Origin: Letharia columbiana
Taxonomy: Eukaryota > Ascomycota > Lecanoromycetes > Lecanorales > Parmeliaceae
Reading direction: 5' to 3'
Assembly (NCBI RefSeq): GCF_014066305.1
Contig: NW_023501077.1
Coordinates: forward strand, 186,001-250,000
DNA: 64,000 nt
Each line of letters begins with the position of its first letter. Within the stretch, counting starts at the first letter, position 1. The position numbers were made by a program, and so were the translations under genes. Positions 16,578 through 43,057 of this stretch are shown here, in pieces. The notes under the pieces are model-generated. The model had not been told where the DNA came from. It made no database searches and worked only from the letters and a program-made list of their open reading frames with translations.

Positions 16578-18709
16578 ATGGAGCCCGACAATTCCTCTCA
16601 TCCCCCCTCATATGCTGGAGAAGATACCCGGTTGACGAGCACCAAAGAGCTCTCAGGTTGGTATTCTTATGGCTGGGCGGCCGAGGTATTCGTTGTATGC
16701 GGTGTTGGGTCTTTCATCCCCATTACCTTGGAACAACTCGCGCGTGAGCGCGGCGTCCTCCTGTCCGACAGGACGATATCCTGCAGCGCCGGCTTCAAGA
16801 CTCCCATGCCAATAGAATTCCCAAATACAACCATGCCATACGAGGCGGCGGCTACGACTTTATCCTCTCGAGCAGATAAAGGACAGTGTATAATCAATTT
16901 CTTCGGGACTGACATCAACACGGCGAGCTTTGCCATGTACACCTTCTCAATCAGTGTGCTCGTACAAGCTCTTCTCATCATCTCAATGAGTGGAGCTGCA
17001 GACCACGGTCGTTACCGAAAGAGCCTCCTGCTCTCATTTGCATTTACAGGAGCTGTGGCGACCATGCTTTTCCTTGCTGTAATCCCGAAGGTCTACGCAC
17101 TTGGGTCATTGTTGGCCATCATCTCAAACACTTGCTTCGGCGCGTCTTTTGTCTTATTGAATTCATTCCTCCCCGTCCTTGTACGTCGGCACCCATCCAT
17201 TCAGGCGCCTGAGATCGATGGAAACAGCTATTCGGAAGGGTCAAGCTCCGAGCAGACAACCGACTACGAGGATCAAGGTCACGATAGTGCTACAGAATCA
17301 CTTATACAGTCCTCTTCCGTCGCTCGTCGAATGGTACCTATTGAAACTTCATCTACGCCCATTTCACCTGCACTTCGGCTATCAACCAAGATATCGTCAT
17401 ATGGGATAGGGATTGGATATATTGCGGCGGTGATTGTCCAGACCCTAGGTATAACAATTGTTGTAGTTGCGGACTCTATGACCACGTCCACGACTTTGAC
17501 TCTTCGAATCGTCCTCTTTCTCGTCGGTCTATGGTGGTTTATCTTCACAATTCCAGCAGCACTCTGGCTGCGGCCGCGGCCGGGTCCTCCACTACCATTT
17601 ATAAGCAATGGTAAACAAAGGAGCTGGGCGGGTTATATTGCTTATGCATGGTGCTCCCTTGGGAAGACTATCCTGCGAGCTCGCCGCTTGAAGGATGTCA
17701 CGCTTTTTCTAGGCGCTTGGCTACTTCTGAGCGATGGCATCGCAACAGTCAGCGGTACTGCCGTGTTGTTCGCGAAGACGGAACTGCAAATGACACCCGC
17801 CGCTCTAGCATTGATCAGTCTGGTCGGGACCGTCGCAGGGATTTTGGGAGCATTTTCCTGGAACAAAGTTGTACGTATTTTCGGACTGATTTCTTCTCGA
17901 TGAGTACCGCCACTGGAAACGTGATGCATGTTTCTGAGGCTTTCCGAGAGCTAAGGGCCCTTTTTACTTCCCATCCTCGTCTCAAAAGTTGAATTGTCTT
18001 GAAGAATTGAAACTGACTCTGAAATCCCAATCACAGTCCCAATTGTTGGGCATCCCTCCGTCAAAAACGATTATCGCTTGTATATGTCTTTTCGAAATAA
18101 TTCCAATATATGGGCTTCTAGGATATATACCTGCCATAAGACGCTTTGGGGTGTTCGGTCTCCAGGTATGCATAGTTTGGCAAGGGCTTATTCTTCTTGT
18201 TGTGATTGGAGATTTCGTGTCTTGAAATGGGTTTCTTACTGCGTTGTGCTCTCTTCATCTGGTTCCTCACTCGACCTTTTGTTATGAGAAGAGTATGCTG
18301 ACTTCCGAATCCTCGTTAGCAACCGTGGGAGATGTATCCTCTCGGTGCCATCTATGGCATCGTTCTTGGAGGGCTTTCTTCGTACTGTCGTAGTCTCTTT
18401 GGAGAGCTCATACCTCCAGGATCTGAAGCTGCATTCTACGCTTTATATGCAATCACGGACAAAGGCTCAAGCGTTTTCGGCCCAGCCATTGTTGGTGTGA
18501 TTACAGATCGATATGGGGAGATACGTCCTGCGTTCGTGTTTCTGGCTGTACTCGTATTCATACCGCTGCCTCTGATGTTGCTGGTCGATGTTGATCGAGG
18601 GAAAAGAGATGGTGCTGAAATGGCAAAGGAGCTGGAAGGAAAGAATGATATTACTCAATCCAGGAGCGAAGATGTTATCCGGCTGGTTGATGAAGAGGAA
18701 GACGAATGA
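16578..18709 (+). CDS. atg22: Autophagy-related protein 22 (vacuolar amino-acid effluxer)
   Basis: Three exons, 16578..17870, 18037..18165 and 18320..18709, encode 603 residues, normal for Atg22. The introns are long for this window (166 and 154 bp). Atg22 is an MFS-like vacuolar membrane protein that exports amino acids after autophagic breakdown. The N-terminus has the family signature [19 protein letters not shown] followed by [15 protein letters not shown]. Many hydrophobic segments follow. A polar cytosolic loop rich in Ser, Glu and Asp lies around residues 220-260. The C-terminal exon has [20 protein letters not shown] and [15 protein letters not shown], diagnostic of the family. Both splices are in phase 0. 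The first intron starts GTACGTATTTTC, like the unusual introns of the permease gene. Confidence 0.95.
17871..18036 (+). repeat. atg22 intron 1, candidate introner-like element
   Basis: A 166-bp intron whose first 12 bases (GTACGTATTTTC) equal the start of permease introns 2 and 6, and whose end (AAACTGACTCTGAAATC) resembles their 3' block. It is about three times the usual intron length here. The resemblance is by eye. Confidence 0.4.
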
Positions 18710-21845: not shown

Positions 21846-22216
21846 ATGGCGTCTGACTCAAAAGACTCCGCTTTTGGCATCCTCGGCTCCTCGAAGCTCA
21901 ACACCGCCGACGGCAAGAATCCCACCTCCTCCGCCACCACTTCTATGTCAACTCAGGCAGGCACAGCTAGCGGTCAAAAGAACACCGAAGAGTACAGACA
22001 GGTTCGTACATCCCGGAGTAAACGTTATTTGTTTGGGGTTAAGGGGAGCAAAAGTGTCCTCCTACTCTTGAGAATTTGTTTCATTACCCAGGTTCTTGGC
22101 TTGAAGGAGCAATGCTGACTCCGAATTCTGCGTAGGAGTGCAGCAAGGCTCATGATGCTCTAGAGGATCGTCTACGCGATGAGGAGAGGGAAAGGAAGTG
22201 GAGCGGGAGGTGGTGA
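21846..22216 (+). CDS. Small polar protein of unknown function (78 residues)
   Basis: Two exons, 21846..22001 and 22136..22216, join in phase 0 across a 134-bp intron (gttcgt...gcgtag) to give 78 residues. The ATG has a good context (ACCATGG). The first half is rich in Ser, Thr, Ala and Gly. The second exon encodes a highly charged segment (ECSKAHDALEDRLRDEERE) likely to form a helix, ending in WSGRW. I do not recognise the family. Evidence for it being real is the in-phase intron with good splice ends, and its position divergent from oct1 with a short shared promoter. The intron 3' end (ATGCTGACTCCGAAT) nearly repeats that of atg22 intron 2. Confidence 0.6.
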
Positions 22217-22557: not shown

Positions 22558-24728
22558 TCACGCCCCGCCTTTGGTGTAGACCTCATAAGGCGCACCTACT
22601 CCCAGAGCGCGTCTCGCATCCAAGCCCAGGAGGGAGAGGCCATGCAGATAACTTGCGTTTGTCCACCCAAAACTACTCCCTCAGATCAGCGGTTGTGTAT
22701 CTAAACATCTCGGAAGCATTCACGCGACTCACCCTTCCTCTGGAGCGTACTTGAAGCTCAGTCCTTGGTTCCCATACTCTGCCCCTACGCGGTGGGGGCT
22801 CTTGAGCTGCGTGACGTCGTATTTCTCGACCACAGTACCATTGTAATCCACGAAAACCTTGGTGATCATGTGAAGCCAGCGGTACGCTAGTCTCTCGGCC
22901 TCCTCGTGATAACCATATTTCCTCAAGCCATCCCAAGCCAGAATTTGATGAGGAGCCCAGCCATTAGGATAGTCCCATTGCTTCTGAGGATTCGCTGCAT
23001 TGACCGGGCCACGAGAATTCTCTGTATTCGAAGAGAGACCACCCACACATTCGAATTTGGGAAGGCCTTTTTCAACGAGTAAAGCCGCTTGATGCGGACT
23101 AGCTACCCCGCACCAAAGAGCCCAGAGGCTTGTCACCGTCTCATACTCAGTTTGCTTCTGAGTCACCGAGTTGTAGTCAAAATAGAGACCCTTCTCTTCA
23201 TTCCACAAATACCTATCAATTAATCCTTTTCTCTTTTTGGCAGAAATGTCCCAAACGGCGGATGACTCGAAACGATCCACCACCTGACCGGGAGCACAAA
23301 AATCAGCAGGTACTTGAAGAGTGTCCTCGAAGATGGTCCGAATCGCCTCCGCGATGTCCATTTCGTATCGATAGAGCAGACAATTCAAATCTATCGTTGC
23401 TAAGTCTGCGCAGACTCCCACGAATCGATTCGACGTATCATGGCCACTTTCCCTGAGTGCTCTGTCATGGAGGAAGAAGGTGTCAAGCTCAGGCTCTTGG
23501 ATTTTACCATTGGTGTATGCCTGTCCAATCTCAGTCATCGTCATGTTGTGCTTCGCGGCGTAAGGTTCCAAAATGTGGTCAAACCCCGTTGACTCAACTT
23601 CTGGAGGGATACCAATCCCAATGGGCCTGTATCTGGTGAGTCCAGTGCCTTCGTCGTATCTGGGAGCCGTCATCCAGTAATTGTAATACTCCTTCATTGC
23701 GGCGAGGATTGCCAGCTTGAGAAGGTCCTTGGATCCAGGCTCATGTTTGGTCGCATTGTAAGTTTTCAAAGCTAGATCTGTGAGGAAAGGGGGCTGTGCT
23801 CTGCCAAGGTAGTACGACCGGTTCGCATTGAGTATTTTGCCATAGTGTTTGATCTCGAAGATAAAATGTCGTAGGATCGACTTGACAACATGTGGATGCG
23901 TATCTATCATTGACGTAGCACAGAAACAGCTATCCCAGTTGTAGAGTTCGTTGAATCGTCCTCCAGGTACAACGAATGGGAGTCCTATGAGTTCTTTGCG
24001 TCCATTCGAGTCATTTCCCTCCATCTCAAGCGCCAGAATGCCAGGCTTATCGTTCAAGCTCCTGATGAACTCAGCCGTGATGTCGCTTTCTGGAAGCCAT
24101 TGTACGTCCAAGCTTATGTCTGGCATTTCCCGCGCAAGCTTCGAATAGTATGCGTGCTGTAGTGGTACGCCATGCGGTACATAGATTCTTGGGTGAGAGT
24201 CCGCAGCCTCGCGGGTCTTGGGATCTCTCGCTGCAACGGCGATGCCAGAGCTATCGATGTTCCTCTTCAGGTTGTCCCACCAGCTGGTTTTGATCAATCG
24301 CTGGAGACGATCGACTGGATCCTCAGTGACTTTTTCCAAGTCGACTTCCAGAAAGTCCTCCCCCTTCTTCTGCGCCAGGAATAGCTCTTGCAGGAGATTT
24401 GCTAGATGATACGTACCTTTGATCTCAATCTCTTGAGTTGCATCATGCTTCAGAGGTTTCAAGAAGAAAGACTTCGTTTGATGACCAAAATTAGCATCCT
24501 TTCGATCTACACCTAGAGAACATGACACACCTTTGGTCCGCAGTCATCGACCGTTATCAGCCCATCCCCATCTGTATCCTCTCTCCATAACAATTTTTCT
24601 CTTGTAGTATTCACGGCTACTACTAGCTTTCCTTTCGTGCTAGTGACTTCATTTGTAAGTACCTCATAGTATCAGTCGACCCGCCCGGATTGGTATCAAT
24701 GAAAGTAGGGCGATACCGTTGATACCAT
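22558..24728 (-). CDS. Neutral-type trehalase (glycoside hydrolase family 37)
   Basis: Proposed exons: 24728..24726 (the ATG alone), 24662..24531, 24471..22733 and 22672..22558, giving 662 residues. Introns are 63, 59 and 60 bp. The enzyme splits trehalose into two glucoses in the cytosol. An EF-hand-like calcium loop (DTDGDGLITVDD) lies near residue 30, as in fungal Nth1. Trehalase signatures PGGRFNELYNWDS and QWDYPNGWAP are present; the catalytic Asp is in ESGHDTSNR and the catalytic Glu in the C-terminal YAPEEGFGWTNASY, which is restored only by the last splice. The 59-bp intron is supported because it recovers GPK + 16 residues + IKGTY, the family spacing. Unlike Nth1 there is almost no N-terminal regulatory region with PKA sites before the EF hand. 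The one-codon first exon is the weakest part. Confidence 0.85.
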
Positions 24729-38838: not shown

Positions 38839-39293
38839 CTACATCGCATGTTGTTCGACCATTCCCAATGAGTTCCCTACACCGGTTTTAGTAAACCTAT
38901 CCAACTTCTCATCACTCGTCCAGGAACCATTGAGATCCAACCAGTCCACAACCCTGAAGAGAACCAGGCCTTCCACATCATGTTGAATCGCTCCGACCTA
39001 TGCTGTGCCAATTTCATACTTTCTGACATATTGTACATGTCCTCGTCCTAGTCCTTAGCGTTGCATAAAGACGTGGTGGCCTTTCGTCAACAATGTCAGC
39101 CAAAGCACCAGTGCGAATAAGATCATCAGACCCAATTAGTTGTACAAACCCATCACTCCCGTGGAATTTCAAGCGGCCTGCATCAATATATTGCGAAATG
39201 TACGTACCATCGGTCGGCCTCAACGCCATGGAAAATTTCTGGCGCTGTCTGAATCAGATCCACAGCGATTTCTTTCCACAGATGTGACGGCAT
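38839..39293 (-). other. Coding-like remnant or unresolved small multi-exon gene
   Basis: Three minus-strand segments look protein-like but do not join cleanly. At 39293-39207 a frame from ATG reads MPSHLWKEIAVDLIQTAPEI, then FHGVEADRW before a GTACGT. Around 39229-39014 another frame has FHGSDGFVQLIGSDDLI and GALADIVDERPPRLY. At 38997-38839 a frame after an AG reads VEGLVLFRVVDWLDLNGSW and ends MVEQHAM and stop. I recognise no family. It could be a real gene with splice sites I failed to pair, or a decayed one. Confidence 0.25.
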
Positions 39294-39430
39294 CCATCCA
39301 AATACGCGCGGCAAGAAAACATGCTTGCGTCAAGAAATGACTCACGAACTGCCACCACAAAAATGGCCGGGAAAATATGCCATAGATAAGTTCAGATATT
39401 GAACGATATATGACACATTGGAAAAAGCTA

Positions 39431-42201
39431 TCACAAGATATACTACACGAGTTTCAAGGTCAGTACTGCTTTTTCTTTAAAGTAAACGATTGAGTTGCAA
39501 CAGAGGTCTCGGGAACAGAAAAGGTCAGTTTGCTCCGAAGATATGTCTTACGACTCAATTTCGTACCAAATATGAAGGATCATCTCGAAAACGTGCGTAC
39601 CCTGAATGTCGGACCATAGTTCTCTTCACCCACCTCACTCTCTTGTCCTTCTCCACCTGGTTGGTTGACCACCCTATTCTTATTTGAGCCATGCAGCTTG
39701 TCGAGCTTTCGGTTTTCCCAGACTAATAGGCATCTCAACCCGAACGCTAGAAAACCGGTGAAGAAGGTAAAGGCTGCACTGATAGCCATGCCCTTGATGT
39801 ATCTTGGACTTTCGTTCATGGGAAAAGAATTTGTTCCCAGAAGAGGCTTTTGAGGATTAGCAAAGGTTGACATGGAAGGGCCCAAATACTTACACCACAT
39901 TGGCCAATCAGGTTCAGAAGCACGATTCCCATACCTCTAGTGATCTTGGGCTCAGCATTTCTCTTCATCGCGAACATAGAAGTAAAGGGCAGATCCTGCA
40001 AGAAGAGTCCCCAAGGAGCGTGCTTTACGACTCAAGTTGCGCTACTCAATTGGAGAGAACACCTCAACAGCGGACTTACCGTCTCGTGTCACTACCTTGG
40101 TTGTCTATATTTATTAGCCAATGATCTCATGAATCCAAATGGCTCAAGACATACTTGTTACCCAGGGTAGTATATTTGCTATGCCTGAAGGCGAAAGCGT
40201 TAGCGAACTGGCGGTTGCCCAAGAGCAGATTGAATTACTCACTTGGAAATATGCCGGACGCTGCTAGGAATACCCCAAAGTATCTCACACCGACAGATTT
40301 TACAGTGGCCAACATGATGTAACCAATCCCGCCAACTGTAGTGAGGACCATAATCGTGTAGCCTCTCTGTTGGGTCTTGTCCGCAACCCAAGTTGAGAGA
40401 ATAGTCACAAGGAATGAAACGAAAAATGGAGGGGCGGTCAGACCCTGGGAGTCAATTGCATTGAACCCCACTGGATTACAATTTCGCAGTCAGTATTGCC
40501 TATTCCAGGAGGTATATCGAGTAAAGACTTCCGAGACATGTCTTATGCAAGCCTCAAGATTTGCTCCAAAAGGGGAACTATGGGCTCTGAAAATACGTAC
40601 TATCATTCAAAATCGTTGGCAAAAACACTACTCCGGTCAGTCGTCTTCAGTAAGAAGCTATAAAGATCGAGATATCTACCGGGAAGCGAGGAGAAGCCAA
40701 CGTTGCAGCTGAAGTACATGAACTGCACCAAATCAGCTTTTGGAATAGAGAGGAAACAACACCCGCCGAGCCATCGCTTTTAAGAACCCGACAAAGTCGG
40801 GGATGTTACTTACGGCTGTGAACCAGCATTTCACGTCCATGAGAGCAAGCCCGACCTCTTTCCAGACTATACCGCCCAATCTTTCCACACTGCCGACCTG
40901 CCGAACGCCTCGAGCTTTCGCAATGAGCTTTAGGGTGTCAGCGTCAGTAGTCTTACGCAAGGATCCTTCACTCACCTTTTCTTCTTCTGTCAAAAAGCGC
41001 GCCTTGTCTGGGGTGTCTGGGAGAAAGAAAAATGCAACTGGCGCCATGCAAATCGTTGGAAGACCTTCCACAAGGAAAAGTAGACGCCATTTTGCCAGAT
41101 GAGGATGCCCCGAGGTGATTCCATAGGCTAACGCTCCAGAAAAACTTGTTGCTAAAGGAGCGGCAGAGAGAAAGATGGCGATACGTAGGCCGACTTCGTG
41201 TCTCAGATAAAAGAATGACAGAAGATACGGTATCCCTGGACCAAAACCAGCTTCGCTGATTCCGAGGAAGAAACGGCATGCCATCATTCCGCTCCAGGTG
41301 TTAGTCCCGGACTGTGCCGAAGCAATCAACCCCCATCCAAAGCTAGTGGGGATACGCAGTCAGCTTCTCGCCTTCAAAAGACCATTCAGTCTCGAGGCAT
41401 GCATGATCAAAGGGATGAAAGAGCTCGTGGCTCCTAAATAATGAATTGCTATTCGAGCGGCGGTTTCAATCAGGAAGGAATGAGGGGACGTCACGTACAC
41501 GGTAAAAGCTAACCAAATGCTGTCAAAGATTTTGGAGTCAGCATTGGCATATCAAGTGGGGTTTCGAGCCACGAAAAATGTCTGCAAAAGCCACCAATCC
41601 CGAGACAGCCCTCGAGACCCAGAGTCTAGTCTCGGAAGAGGGTCCAGTCTCTGAAAATACGTACTGAGGCGGTACGATCTTCCACATGAGCGCTTGAAAC
41701 TCGAAAACGATATACGTGATGTAGAAGATCGTCAACAGCCACTGATAATCATTGCCAACAAGGTGTAGGTCCTTCGTCATGCCTGCAATTCGAGCACTAC
41801 ATTTCGATCTCGCTGTCAGTATTGCCTATTTGAGGCGGTATCAAGCCTGGAACATGTTTTGAGAGTACAGACTCCCGAGACATGCTTCAAGCCTCAAGAC
41901 TTGGTTCAAAAGAGGAACTCTAGGTTCCGAGAATAACGTACTTCCCTATGTTGGATCGATCGAGGAAGGATAGAACGTATGATGCCGTGACCAGCGGAAC
42001 TATCCTGAAGTCCATTTTACGAACCACTTTCCTTTCAGTGTCGGAAAGAAAATGGCGGTCGTGTGATTGATGGAGGGATTCTACGTCATGGCCTCGGACA
42101 TAACTTTTTTCTGGGTCAAAAGATGGATAAGTCGTTTGATCATTCACAGGATCAGTGCTCGTAGGAGGCGGAGTACGCTGAAATTTGCCCAGCAATCCCA
42201 T
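39431..42201 (-). CDS. Dal5/allantoate-type MFS anion:cation permease
   Basis: Thirteen exons: 42201..41942, 41796..41665, 41519..41499, 41342..40976, 40927..40814, 40722..40680, 40627..40601, 40470..40243, 40184..40155, 40104..40080, 39936..39894, 39846..39601 and 39442..39431, in all 515 residues. Phases agree throughout. The family (anion:cation symporters such as Dal5, Tna1, Vht1) imports allantoate, nicotinate, biotin-like or peptide substrates; the substrate here is unknown. Motifs: VLSFLDRSNIGNARIAGM, WSGMMACRFFLGISEAGFGP, EGLPTICMAPVAFFFLPD, FMYFSCNVGFSSLPVFLP, NNQGSDTRRGMGIVL and the tail ENYGPTFRYIL. One 48-bp intron (40975..40928) is stopless and a multiple of three; removing it restores EEEKLIAKARGVRQVG. 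Several exons are tiny (12-30 bp). Six introns are unusually long and alike. Confidence 0.9.
39443..39600 (-). repeat. Long permease intron (158 bp), candidate introner-like element
   Basis: Last intron of the permease gene. It starts GTACGC, shares TTGAGTCGTAA with the 143-bp intron at 39937-40079, and has GTTCCCGAGACC like the CTCGGGA/CTCGGAA block of other long introns. The 3' end is AGTACTGACCTTGAAA. Confidence 0.45.
39937..40079 (-). repeat. Long permease intron (143 bp), candidate introner-like element
   Basis: It starts GTAAGT, shares TTGAGTCGTAA with the intron at 39443-39600 and ends with AAATGCTGAGCCCAAGATC, close to the 3' block of the others. Confidence 0.4.
40471..40600 (-). repeat. 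Long permease intron (130 bp), introner-like family member
   Basis: It starts GTACGTATTTTCAGAG and contains CTTGAGGCTTG, CATGTCTCGG and AATAGGCAATACTGAC (at 40489-40504), all shared in the same order with the intron at 41797-41941. Confidence 0.65.
41343..41498 (-). repeat. Long permease intron (156 bp), candidate introner-like element
   Basis: It starts GTACGT, contains CATGCCTCGAGACTG, a variant of the CATGTCTCGGGAGTC block, and ends GCTGACTGCG...CTAG. Confidence 0.45.
41520..41664 (-). repeat. Long permease intron (145 bp), introner-like family member
   Basis: The first 16 bases (GTACGTATTTTCAGAG) are identical to the intron at 40471-40600. It has GCTGTCTCGGGA in the middle and ends ATGCTGACTCCAAAATC. 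The length equals that of the intron at 41797-41941. Confidence 0.6.
41797..41941 (-). repeat. Long permease intron (145 bp), introner-like family member
   Basis: It starts GTACGT and has CTTGAGGCTTG, CATGTCTCGGGAGTCT and AATAGGCAATACTGAC (at 41815-41830), all in the order seen in the intron at 40471-40600. Confidence 0.65.
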
Positions 42202-42482
42202 GCTTGCAATTGACAGCTATAGTATGAAAAGTGAAAAGCGGTTCAGTGGCCCAGAGCTCAGTCGAAGCAGAGTGAGGTAGGTGAGAATAAGTTCGGAGAG
42301 ATGGAAGGAATAGTGCTGCCAATTAAGTCAAAATGCTTGCGGACGGTAAGCAGTAGGTAAGCAGTATCCCGAGGACGGCGAGGTACAGCACATGACGCTA
42401 ACTGGCATGGAGAAGGAAAAAGCGGAGACTGTGGTTGGTGGATAACAGCAGTTTCTCCGCACGTTCCCCACAATGCCCTAAG
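42202..42482. promoter_or_regulatory. Promoter region of the permease gene
   Basis: Upstream sequence of the permease, ending at the inverted-repeat element. A short direct repeat GTAAGCAGTA occurs at about 42346-42366. Confidence 0.4.
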
Positions 42483-43057
42483 TACGACGGACGGGTTAGA
42501 AAGTATTTTTTTCTATCTTTTTTTTCTTCCAGAGGTACTCTTCAAAGTATTCTTTTAGAGATATTCTAGGCTCTTTCGAAAGTAGGGGTAGGCTACTCTA
42601 GGGGTACTCTCCGAGGTACTCTTCCGGGTACTCTTCCGGGTACTCTTCCGGATACTTACGACGGATAATAACTAATACTACGATCAAATATTTTATAAAG
42701 TTCTTCGCAAAAAAAAAAAATTTAAAAAATTTACGGGACTTTCCGCGGAACTTCCCGTGAATTCTTTTTTCGAGTGATTTTTCGAGTGATTTTTCGAGTA
42801 AGTCTCTAAGAAACCCCTCGAGTAACCCTCTAAGTGCTCTCTAAAATACCCTCCTCGAGTATCCCCGAAAGTATACCCTCGAATACTCTCTTAAATCCCC
42901 CTCGAGTACCCCTTAAAGAATCCCCTAAAGTATCTCTCTAAGATATTTCTTTAAAAAACCTCTTTAAATATCTCTTTAAAATCGCGGGAAGAAAAAGAAA
43001 TTTAAGAAGAAAAAATTGGTTTTAGTTTTGTCGTAGTGTTAGCCCTCGTCCGCCGTA
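42483..43057. mobile_element. MITE-like inverted-repeat element, copy 2
   Basis: About 575 bp. The right end (43019-43057), read inward, is TACGGCGGACGAGGGCTAAC followed by ACTACGACAAAACTAAA, differing only at a few positions from the ends of copy 1. The left end keeps just TACGACGGACG and then diverges, so this copy is decayed on that side. Outer flanks differ from those of copy 1, which places the element boundary at the TA. The interior has three GGTACTCTTCCG-like units (42613-42650) and further degenerate CGAGTA/TACCCTC repeats. No coding capacity is present. Confidence 0.7.
42595..42655. repeat. 12-bp GGTACTCTTCCG minisatellite in element copy 2
   Basis: About five tandem units of GGTACTCTTCCG and variants. 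The unit is the reverse complement of the GGAAGAGTACC-type unit of copy 1. Confidence 0.8.

What the first reader, a model, noticed from the sequence alone, without database searches (positions are those of the whole stretch)
39443..41941. Six mutually similar long introns in one permease gene: a candidate introner-like family
The gene has 12 introns in two length classes: six of 47-91 bp and six of 130-158 bp. The long ones share ordered blocks. Introns 41797-41941 and 40471-40600 both contain CTTGAGGCTTG, CATGTCTCGG and AATAGGCAATACTGAC; 41520-41664 and 40471-40600 share their first 16 bases; 39937-40079 and 39443-39600 share TTGAGTCGTAA. Five of six begin GTACG. Two have exactly the same length (145 bp). 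Introns normally do not resemble each other. Introner-like elements that spread as introns are known in some fungi, so this is either a new family or a new host for one.
Basis: partly seen in the sequence, partly recalled or inferred. Interest (0 to 1): 0.8.

Follow-up and report, generated by a model that had tools for sequence, protein, structure and literature searches.

The report
Hairpin introner-like introns in wolf lichen
The similar long introns in this transporter gene belong to a family of roughly three hundred or more related introns, hairpin-shaped in their ancestral form, scattered through the genes of a wolf-lichen fungus, which points to introns that copied themselves into many genes.

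Summary
The gene is a 515-aa MFS permease with exactly the 12 introns described. The genome matches Letharia columbiana, a lichen fungus. The long introns belong to a dispersed family of about 297 located elements (lower bound, a few chance matches included) with at least three subfamilies (A 147 nt, B 155 nt, C 147 nt). Of the six introns, four are clear members, one is a probable decayed member (39937-40079) and one is undecided (41343-41498). Excision reopens reading frames (54 of 82 copies against 19 of 82 antisense) and restores Pfam domains. There is no target-site duplication or target preference. Adjacent copies share a strand in 40 of 43 pairs. Subfamily consensuses are near-palindromes that fold into a long hairpin, while single copies decay without detectable compensation, so the hairpin seems to matter for spreading more than for splicing. 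These look like fungal introner-like elements in an apparently new host class. Splicing, and gain relative to sister species, were not tested directly.

The parts
39431..42201 (-). host gene: 515-aa MFS permease (nicotinate/pantothenate-type judging by names of some hits), 12 introns
   Evidence: open 515-codon frame after removing 12 GT-AG introns; best hit Lepraria finkii 82% over 100%, Pfam PF07690 in the listed hits
41797..41941 (-). introner-like intron, subfamily A, 145 nt
   Evidence: 82% to subfamily A consensus, E 2.8e-33
41520..41664 (-). introner-like intron, diverged subfamily A, 145 nt
   Evidence: profile E 3.5e-13 with a profile that does not contain it; one other genomic match, E 1.3e-8
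41343..41498 (-). long intron, 156 nt, membership undecided
   Evidence: best profile E 4e-4; no BLAST match elsewhere in the genome
40471..40600 (-). introner-like intron, subfamily A with an internal deletion, 130 nt
   Evidence: 26 matches in own genome incl. itself
39937..40079 (-). probable decayed subfamily B-like intron, 143 nt
   Evidence: profile E 1.5e-7 with a profile that does not contain it; no BLAST match elsewhere
39443..39600 (-). introner-like intron, subfamily B, 158 nt, between Arg and Tyr of the C-terminal FRYIL, just before the stop
   Evidence: 4 other genomic matches, best E 7.9e-25
17871..18036 (+). further member elsewhere in the window (intron-like, GTACGT...CACAG, 166 nt)
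   Evidence: profile E 2.7e-10 with subfamily B over 17871-18026; ends read from the sequence
22002..22135 (+). further member, subfamily B-like, 134 nt, 3' part well kept (CTGACTCCGAATTCTGCGTAG)
   Evidence: profile E 1.4e-13 over 22044-22135; pattern hit; 5' end read from the sequence
40928..40975 (-). short regular intron, 48 nt, probably old (same place in Alectoria)
   Evidence: a 16-residue stretch at this place in the predicted Alectoria sarmentosa protein P0010 resembles its translation

Best explanation
These introns are copies of a fungal introner-like element (ILE) superfamily that multiplied in the ancestors of Letharia columbiana. Each unit is a complete spliceosomal intron: GTACGT donor, CTGAC branch site, TAG/CAG (in subfamily C AAG) acceptor. 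Its two halves are near-complementary, so an intact master RNA folds into one long hairpin that brings the two splice sites together (shown on the consensus sequences). Spread was most likely through the excised intron RNA: a hairpin-stabilised intron is inserted seamlessly, mostly in the sense of transcription, into a gene, by reverse splicing or by use at a break, and is then copied into DNA (inferred). Once inserted, the intron is removed by the spliceosome (inferred from restored reading frames and domains). It then drifts: the hairpin decays without detectable compensation and internal deletions shorten it, so that older copies look like ordinary introns.
For: Copy number: about 297 distinct places on 65 contigs from seven searches. 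End words against reversed controls: 69 v 0, 71 v 1, 166 v 1, 42 v 4, 58 v 0. Boundaries: conservation falls to <= 0.11 bit at every one of eight flank positions on each side, and flanks share no more words than shuffled flanks (mean longest word 3.12 v 3.08; 80 copies). Excision: open across the junction +-90 nt in 54 of 82 copies, 19 of 82 antisense, 4 of 82 with the intron kept. In ten spliced ORFs, chosen by eye from 20 printed, 13 of 16 junctions lie inside Pfam matches. Strand: adjacent copies within 1.5 kb share the strand in 40 of 43 pairs, against 46 of 81 at 5-50 kb. Hairpin: subfamily A consensus -51.2 kcal/mol, z -5.8; six well-kept copies z -1.95 to -4.72; consensus against own reverse complement z 6.2 (A) and 19.0 (B); three two-sided compensatory differences between A and B in a 24-pair stem.
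Against: No RNA-seq: splicing is inferred. No sister-species DNA: gain is inferred from dispersed similar copies. RNAalifold on 24 copies finds only 2 pairs, and the three A introns of this gene fold little or no better than shuffles (z -1.8, -1.0, +0.8). Only 12 of 82 copies exceed all their 60 shuffles in self-complementarity. Paired columns are somewhat better kept than unpaired ones (0.861 v 0.828 in A, 0.840 v 0.766 in B), so some constraint on single copies is not excluded. The RNA route is indirect: terminal inverted repeats would equally suit a DNA element. Single outliers in the flank test: one 7-base word shared by the two flanks (0.1 expected), one copy (C2_595534) whose first bases repeat downstream. 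Three of 43 close pairs are on opposite strands. A search for translated, unspliced copies in public proteins found none. Thirteen of 82 copies are not open at +-60 nt, though one of them (40471-40600) has a proven frame beside a 27-nt exon.
Confidence: 0.8

Rival explanations
1. The elements are non-autonomous DNA transposons (MITE-like introners) whose inverted ends happen to supply splice sites; a transposase moves them as DNA.
For: Subfamily B has terminal inverted repeats reaching almost to the last bases, and the whole consensus is a near-palindrome. Families with TIRs and/or TSDs are the majority outside ascomycetes (PMC9860276, passages).
Against: No target-site duplication and no target motif in 80 copies, two single outliers aside; strong same-strand bias among close neighbours; ends fit GT and AG; no pair of half-matches that would mark a longer element was seen among the scored matches (only 40 of 104 and 40 of 134 candidates were scored), except a lone 24-nt 3' end beside another element at C34:217452-217475.
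Confidence: 0.17
2. Old ordinary introns that look alike by chance, by shared splice signals, or because the hosts are duplicated genes.
For: Donor, branch site and acceptor motifs are shared by fungal introns (general knowledge); one region (C68 and C101) with two insertions is duplicated.
Against: 69-94% identity over about 150 nt; reversed-pattern controls near zero; no similar flanks (over 55% in 60 nt) in any pair of the 82 copies but the two of the C68/C101 duplication; encoded domains differ.
Confidence: 0.02
3. Donor-disrupted twin introns ([D1,2] stwintrons) or their cropped derivatives, as in Hypoxylaceae and Xylariaceae.
For: Same general look: symmetrical, proliferated, no target duplication (PMC8469720, passages).
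Against: Only 14 of 82 copies follow a G and none of these 14 holds an internal YAG-TRNGT junction beyond base 30; two forms of the Hypoxylon palindrome and three NTIRE-10 words occur in 0 of 82 copies. Origin from a lost stwintron cannot be excluded.
Confidence: 0.03

Closest known systems
Introner-like elements (ILEs) of Dothideomycetes (Fulvia, Dothistroma, Zymoseptoria; van der Burgt 2012 not seen, known through citing papers; Collemare 2015, PMC4457414, part 1 of 4 read)
   Same: spliceosomal introns in many similar copies in unrelated genes; several families per genome; decay until hard to tell from regular introns (PMC4457414); predicted stable fold (PMC8469720 citing van der Burgt)
   Different: different host class (Lecanoromycetes); no AG/GY target preference here (that preference is reported for ILEs by PMC8469720 citing van der Burgt); no near-identical copies seen outside one duplicated region (lowest divergence from the A consensus 5.6%), against 98-99% identity in the active species of PMC4457414; sequences were not compared, no ILE sequences were seen in the text read
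[quoted passage not shown] 2025, PMC12403724, abstract and passages)
   Same: near-palindromic intron, seamless integration without site bias, no target-site duplication, loss of symmetry in divergent copies
   Different: canonical single introns of about 150 nt (the cropped example given is 93 nt); no shared palindrome word; about nine times as many copies as the 33 highly similar ones of Hypoxylon sp. CO27-5
Introners with DNA-transposon signatures (Gozashti 2022, PMC9860276, passages)
   Same: multi-copy introns, inverted repeats at the ends
   Different: no target-site duplication here; that paper states that ascomycete families have no TIRs or TSDs, whereas here the consensus has clear inverted ends

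Membership tests
Fungal introner-like elements | many sequence-similar introns over their full length in unrelated genes of one genome | tested here: met
   about 297 places; of 101 profile hits in DNA held, 82 full length with usable flanks; flanks unrelated in all but one duplicated region
Fungal introner-like elements | canonical U2 intron ends and branch site | tested here: met
   82 copies, ends chosen by a GT/AG rule: 69 begin GTANGT; TAG 39, CAG 33, AAG 10; CTGA invariant and the next C nearly so in 24 aligned copies
Fungal introner-like elements | spliced out of mRNA | tested here: inconclusive
   only indirect: frames and domains restored; no RNA data
Fungal introner-like elements | recent gain at positions without introns in orthologues | not testable with these tools
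   no DNA of sister species in the collections allowed
Fungal introner-like elements | stable secondary structure / inverted repeats | tested here: met
   met for consensus sequences and six well-kept copies; not for most single copies (12 of 82), not for the three A introns of this gene, nor in RNAalifold
DNA-transposon introners | target-site duplication | tested here: not met
   80 copies: 0 with 3 or more identical bases at the exon ends (0.84 expected); one outlier with a 7-base word shared within 12 bases (0.1 expected)
DNA-transposon introners | terminal inverted repeats | tested here: met
   B consensus aligns to its own reverse complement from base 2 to base 154 of 155; A from base 9 to base 136 of 147
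[D1,2] stwintrons | internal intron splitting the donor between bases 1 and 2 | tested here: not met
   14 of 82 copies have G before the donor; 0 of these 14 has an internal YAG-TRNGT junction
Rfam-known RNA (self-splicing introns, snoRNA) | covariance-model match | tested here: not met
   no match at gathering score in window 39000-42500

The most novel reading that the evidence does not exclude
The first introner-like superfamily in lichen-forming fungi (Lecanoromycetes), in which a whole-intron palindrome is kept only in the spreading master lineages and is lost after insertion. That would make the hairpin of the excised intron RNA the mobility signal, and would show that ascomycete introners can carry terminal inverted repeats yet move without target duplications. 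Much of the long-intron class of this lineage, perhaps including internally deleted short introns, would descend from it.
Probability: 0.4. Interest if true: 0.75.

Novelty: new member of a known kind. Interest (0 to 1): 0.58.

Why it matters
How new spliceosomal introns arise is still disputed. A large, datable series of similar introns in a lichen fungus, with related genomes already public, makes gain, spread and decay measurable. That the palindrome is clear in consensus sequences but relaxes in single copies helps to separate what is needed to spread from what is needed to splice. It also bears on the statement that ascomycete introners lack terminal inverted repeats (PMC9860276, passage seen).

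Tried and rejected
Looking for other host species through translated, unspliced copies in 5.8 billion proteins: 11 candidates, none at E <= 1. Rfam: none. Literature for the branch-site word AATACTGAC with 'intron': 24 papers, 10 listed, none of the 10 about introners by title. Repeat-induced point mutation as the cause of decay: no CA>TA excess in A copies (0.074, against 0.204 for CC and 0.075 for CT). Chance similarity and present-day stwintrons: rejected. The permease as a special target: rejected, copies lie in genes with many different domains. One of 30 16-mer hits inspected by eye (L075, C5:757622) is a chance match.

Full report
What is there. The minus strand of 42201-39431 encodes a 515-aa MFS permease. 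Removing twelve GT-AG introns leaves one open frame ending ...GPTFRYIL-stop. The best relative is Lepraria finkii, 82% over the full length. The window is G000:C42:186001-250000 of an assembly of 52,243,142 bases in 161 contigs. A neighbouring gene is 99% identical to Letharia lupina HO133_008043, and PMC9146135 (passages seen) lists Letharia columbiana with 161 contigs and 52.2 Mb. I take the host to be Letharia columbiana, a lichen-forming Lecanoromycete (inference).

A dispersed family. Intron 40471-40600 gave 26 matches including itself; all but three cover at least 110 of its 130 bases, at 69-81% identity apart from itself. A majority consensus (A, 147 nt) gave 40 scored matches out of 104 candidates, 78-94% identity. 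Iterating a profile over the 222,087 bases held (51 segments from 80 loci plus the window) gave 101 hits at E <= 0.01, while the same sequence read backwards gave no hit at E <= 10 in four rounds. Of the 101, 82 are full length with usable flanks. They fall into subfamily A (48), B (16) and a small group of 3, with 15 left over. A subfamily C, ending in CATCAAG or CATTAAG, shows in six copies, some of them cut short. The B consensus (155 nt) gave 40 places out of 134 candidates. Word counts with reversed-word controls: A 3' end 69 v 0; A 5' end 71 v 1; B/C 3' end 166 v 1; C end 42 v 4; B end 58 v 0. Merging the places listed (100 of its 166 were listed; 40 of 44 rows; four partial rows dropped), 67 and 68 gives 297 distinct elements on 65 contigs. 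This is a lower bound with a small risk of double counting and, by the controls, a few chance matches. The two A words co-occur in 21 copies, union 119; a capture-recapture figure for A alone is about 228.

The six introns. 41797-41941 and 40471-40600 are A; 39443-39600 is B. 41520-41664 is a diverged A. 39937-40079 is probably a decayed B-like copy. 41343-41498 is undecided. Two more members lie elsewhere in the window, at 17871-18036 and 22002-22135 on the plus strand.

They are introns. The ends were set by a GT/AG rule; 69 of 82 copies then begin GTANGT. Inside the ends conservation is high; outside, none of the eight positions on either side carries more than 0.11 bit (80 copies; the two C101 copies were dropped as a segmental duplicate of C68). 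After excision the frame is open 90 nt to each side in 54 of 82 copies, against 19 of 82 on the antisense strand and 4 of 82 with the intron kept. At 60 nt the figures are 69, 42 and 5. Thirteen of 82 are not open at 60 nt; one of them is 40471-40600, which sits beside a 27-nt exon. I printed 20 spliced ORFs of the 43 distinct ones with at least 30 residues on each side, and gave Pfam ten of the 20, chosen by eye as likely to be recognised. Nine have domains, and 13 of the 16 junctions lie inside a domain match (DNA methylase, MFS, asparaginase, pyridine nucleotide-disulphide oxidoreductase, MgsA ATPase, methyltransferase, M24 peptidase, aconitase, alpha/beta hydrolase). Phases are even: 14, 16 and 10 for 0, 1 and 2 in 40 copies.

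How they insert. No target duplication: 0 of 80 copies repeat 3 or more bases across the junction (0.84 expected), and the longest shared word between flanks averages 3.12 against 3.08 shuffled. Two single outliers: one pair of flanks shares a 7-base word (0.1 expected), and in one copy, C2_595534, the first bases of the intron recur at the start of the downstream exon. No proto-splice site. Neighbours within 1.5 kb lie on the same strand in 40 of 43 pairs (35 of 36 in the held DNA, an overlapping set), against 46 of 81 at 5-50 kb, and there are 43 such pairs where uniform scatter would give 2.5 (restriction to genes alone would raise the expectation). So several copies often sit close together, nearly always in the same sense.

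The palindrome. The A consensus folds at -51.2 kcal/mol (z -5.8), and six well-kept copies give z -1.95 to -4.72, but the three A introns of the permease give -1.8, -1.0 and +0.8. Aligned with its own reverse complement, the A consensus scores z 6.2 and B z 19.0, B from base 2 to base 154 of 155. A central 24-pair stem, laid out by hand, keeps 22, 22 and 21 pairs in A, B and C although the arms differ. Two-sided compensatory differences number three (A-B), two (A-C) and one (B-C); one-sided differences number six, seven and six, of which three, three and two keep the pair. Within a subfamily the pairs decay as if independent: two-sided kept changes 20 against 17.0 +- 3.4 shuffled in A, 14 against 13.5 +- 3.1 in B; broken pairs 385 against 394.4 +- 5.7 and 129 against 132.5 +- 4.3. 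Paired columns are nevertheless somewhat better kept than unpaired ones (0.861 v 0.828; 0.840 v 0.766). Only 12 of 82 single copies exceed all 60 of their shuffles in self-complementarity, and RNAalifold on 24 copies found 2 pairs. My reading is that the fold was kept while lineages of elements spread and was largely released after insertion; weak constraint on single copies is not excluded.

Age. Divergence from consensus: A 5.6% to 27.5%, median 13.6% (47 copies); B 10.0% to 31.1%, median 16.8% (15 copies). The closest pair of A copies outside the duplicated region differs by 5.4%. The burst is probably older than the species, so sister genera should share many of these introns (prediction).

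Short introns may be older. The Alectoria sarmentosa gene model carries 16 residues that resemble the translation of our 48-nt intron at 40975-40928, and two unnamed relatives (P0048, P0053) carry an insertion where 40679-40628 lies. For the long introns I saw no such insertion in the nine relatives fetched; the Alectoria model does leave our line within about one residue of intron 41343-41498, which may mean an intron there too. None of this proves presence or absence.

Comparison with print. Library searches: introner+fungi 31 papers, 30 listed, introners since 2022 12, introner+lichen 2, neither about lichen introners judging by titles and abstract starts, 'spliceosomal intron'+Lecanoromycetes 8, 'introner-like elements'+Parmeliaceae 0, Letharia+intron 36, 12 listed. 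In the listings I saw, no title or abstract start reports introners in lichen fungi. The main text of PMC9860276 does not name lichens, Letharia or Lecanor-; its supplement was not seen, so this genome may be among its unnamed Pezizomycotina. That paper says ascomycete families have no TIRs or TSDs; PMC8469720 (passages) describes symmetrical introns without TSDs in Hypoxylaceae.

Verdict. A real, large, partly decayed introner-like superfamily: a new member of a known kind in an apparently new host class, with good evidence that the hairpin belongs mainly to the spreading stage.

Noticed in passing
G000:C34:217452-217624 (outside the window): The last 24 bases of one B element end exactly where another B element begins: two elements head to tail with no exon between them.
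   Followed up: no
L063, G000:C132, 3' part at 23942-23994: A short copy of about 65 nt: GTACGT donor followed at once by the 3' half of the element, i.e. an internal deletion that turns an introner into an ordinary-sized short intron.
   Followed up: partly
six copies in C2, C44 and C49 loci; 42 pattern sites: Subfamily C appears to use an AAG acceptor (CATCAAG), beside TAG/CAG of most other copies (4 control sites).
   Followed up: partly
G000:C2:1061508-1061997: Two elements (A and B) interrupt a C-5 cytosine DNA methyltransferase gene with a BAH domain; both junctions lie inside the methylase domain.
   Followed up: no
window 42540-43020: Upstream of the permease lies a stretch of irregular short repeats (TACTCGAGGGG / TTTAAAGAG / AGAGTACC type) of unknown nature, seen by eye.
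   Followed up: no
   Followed up: no
G000:C68:9064-9555 and C101:43221-43712: A duplicated asparaginase gene region carries the same A and B insertions in both copies with near-identical flanks.
   Followed up: partly
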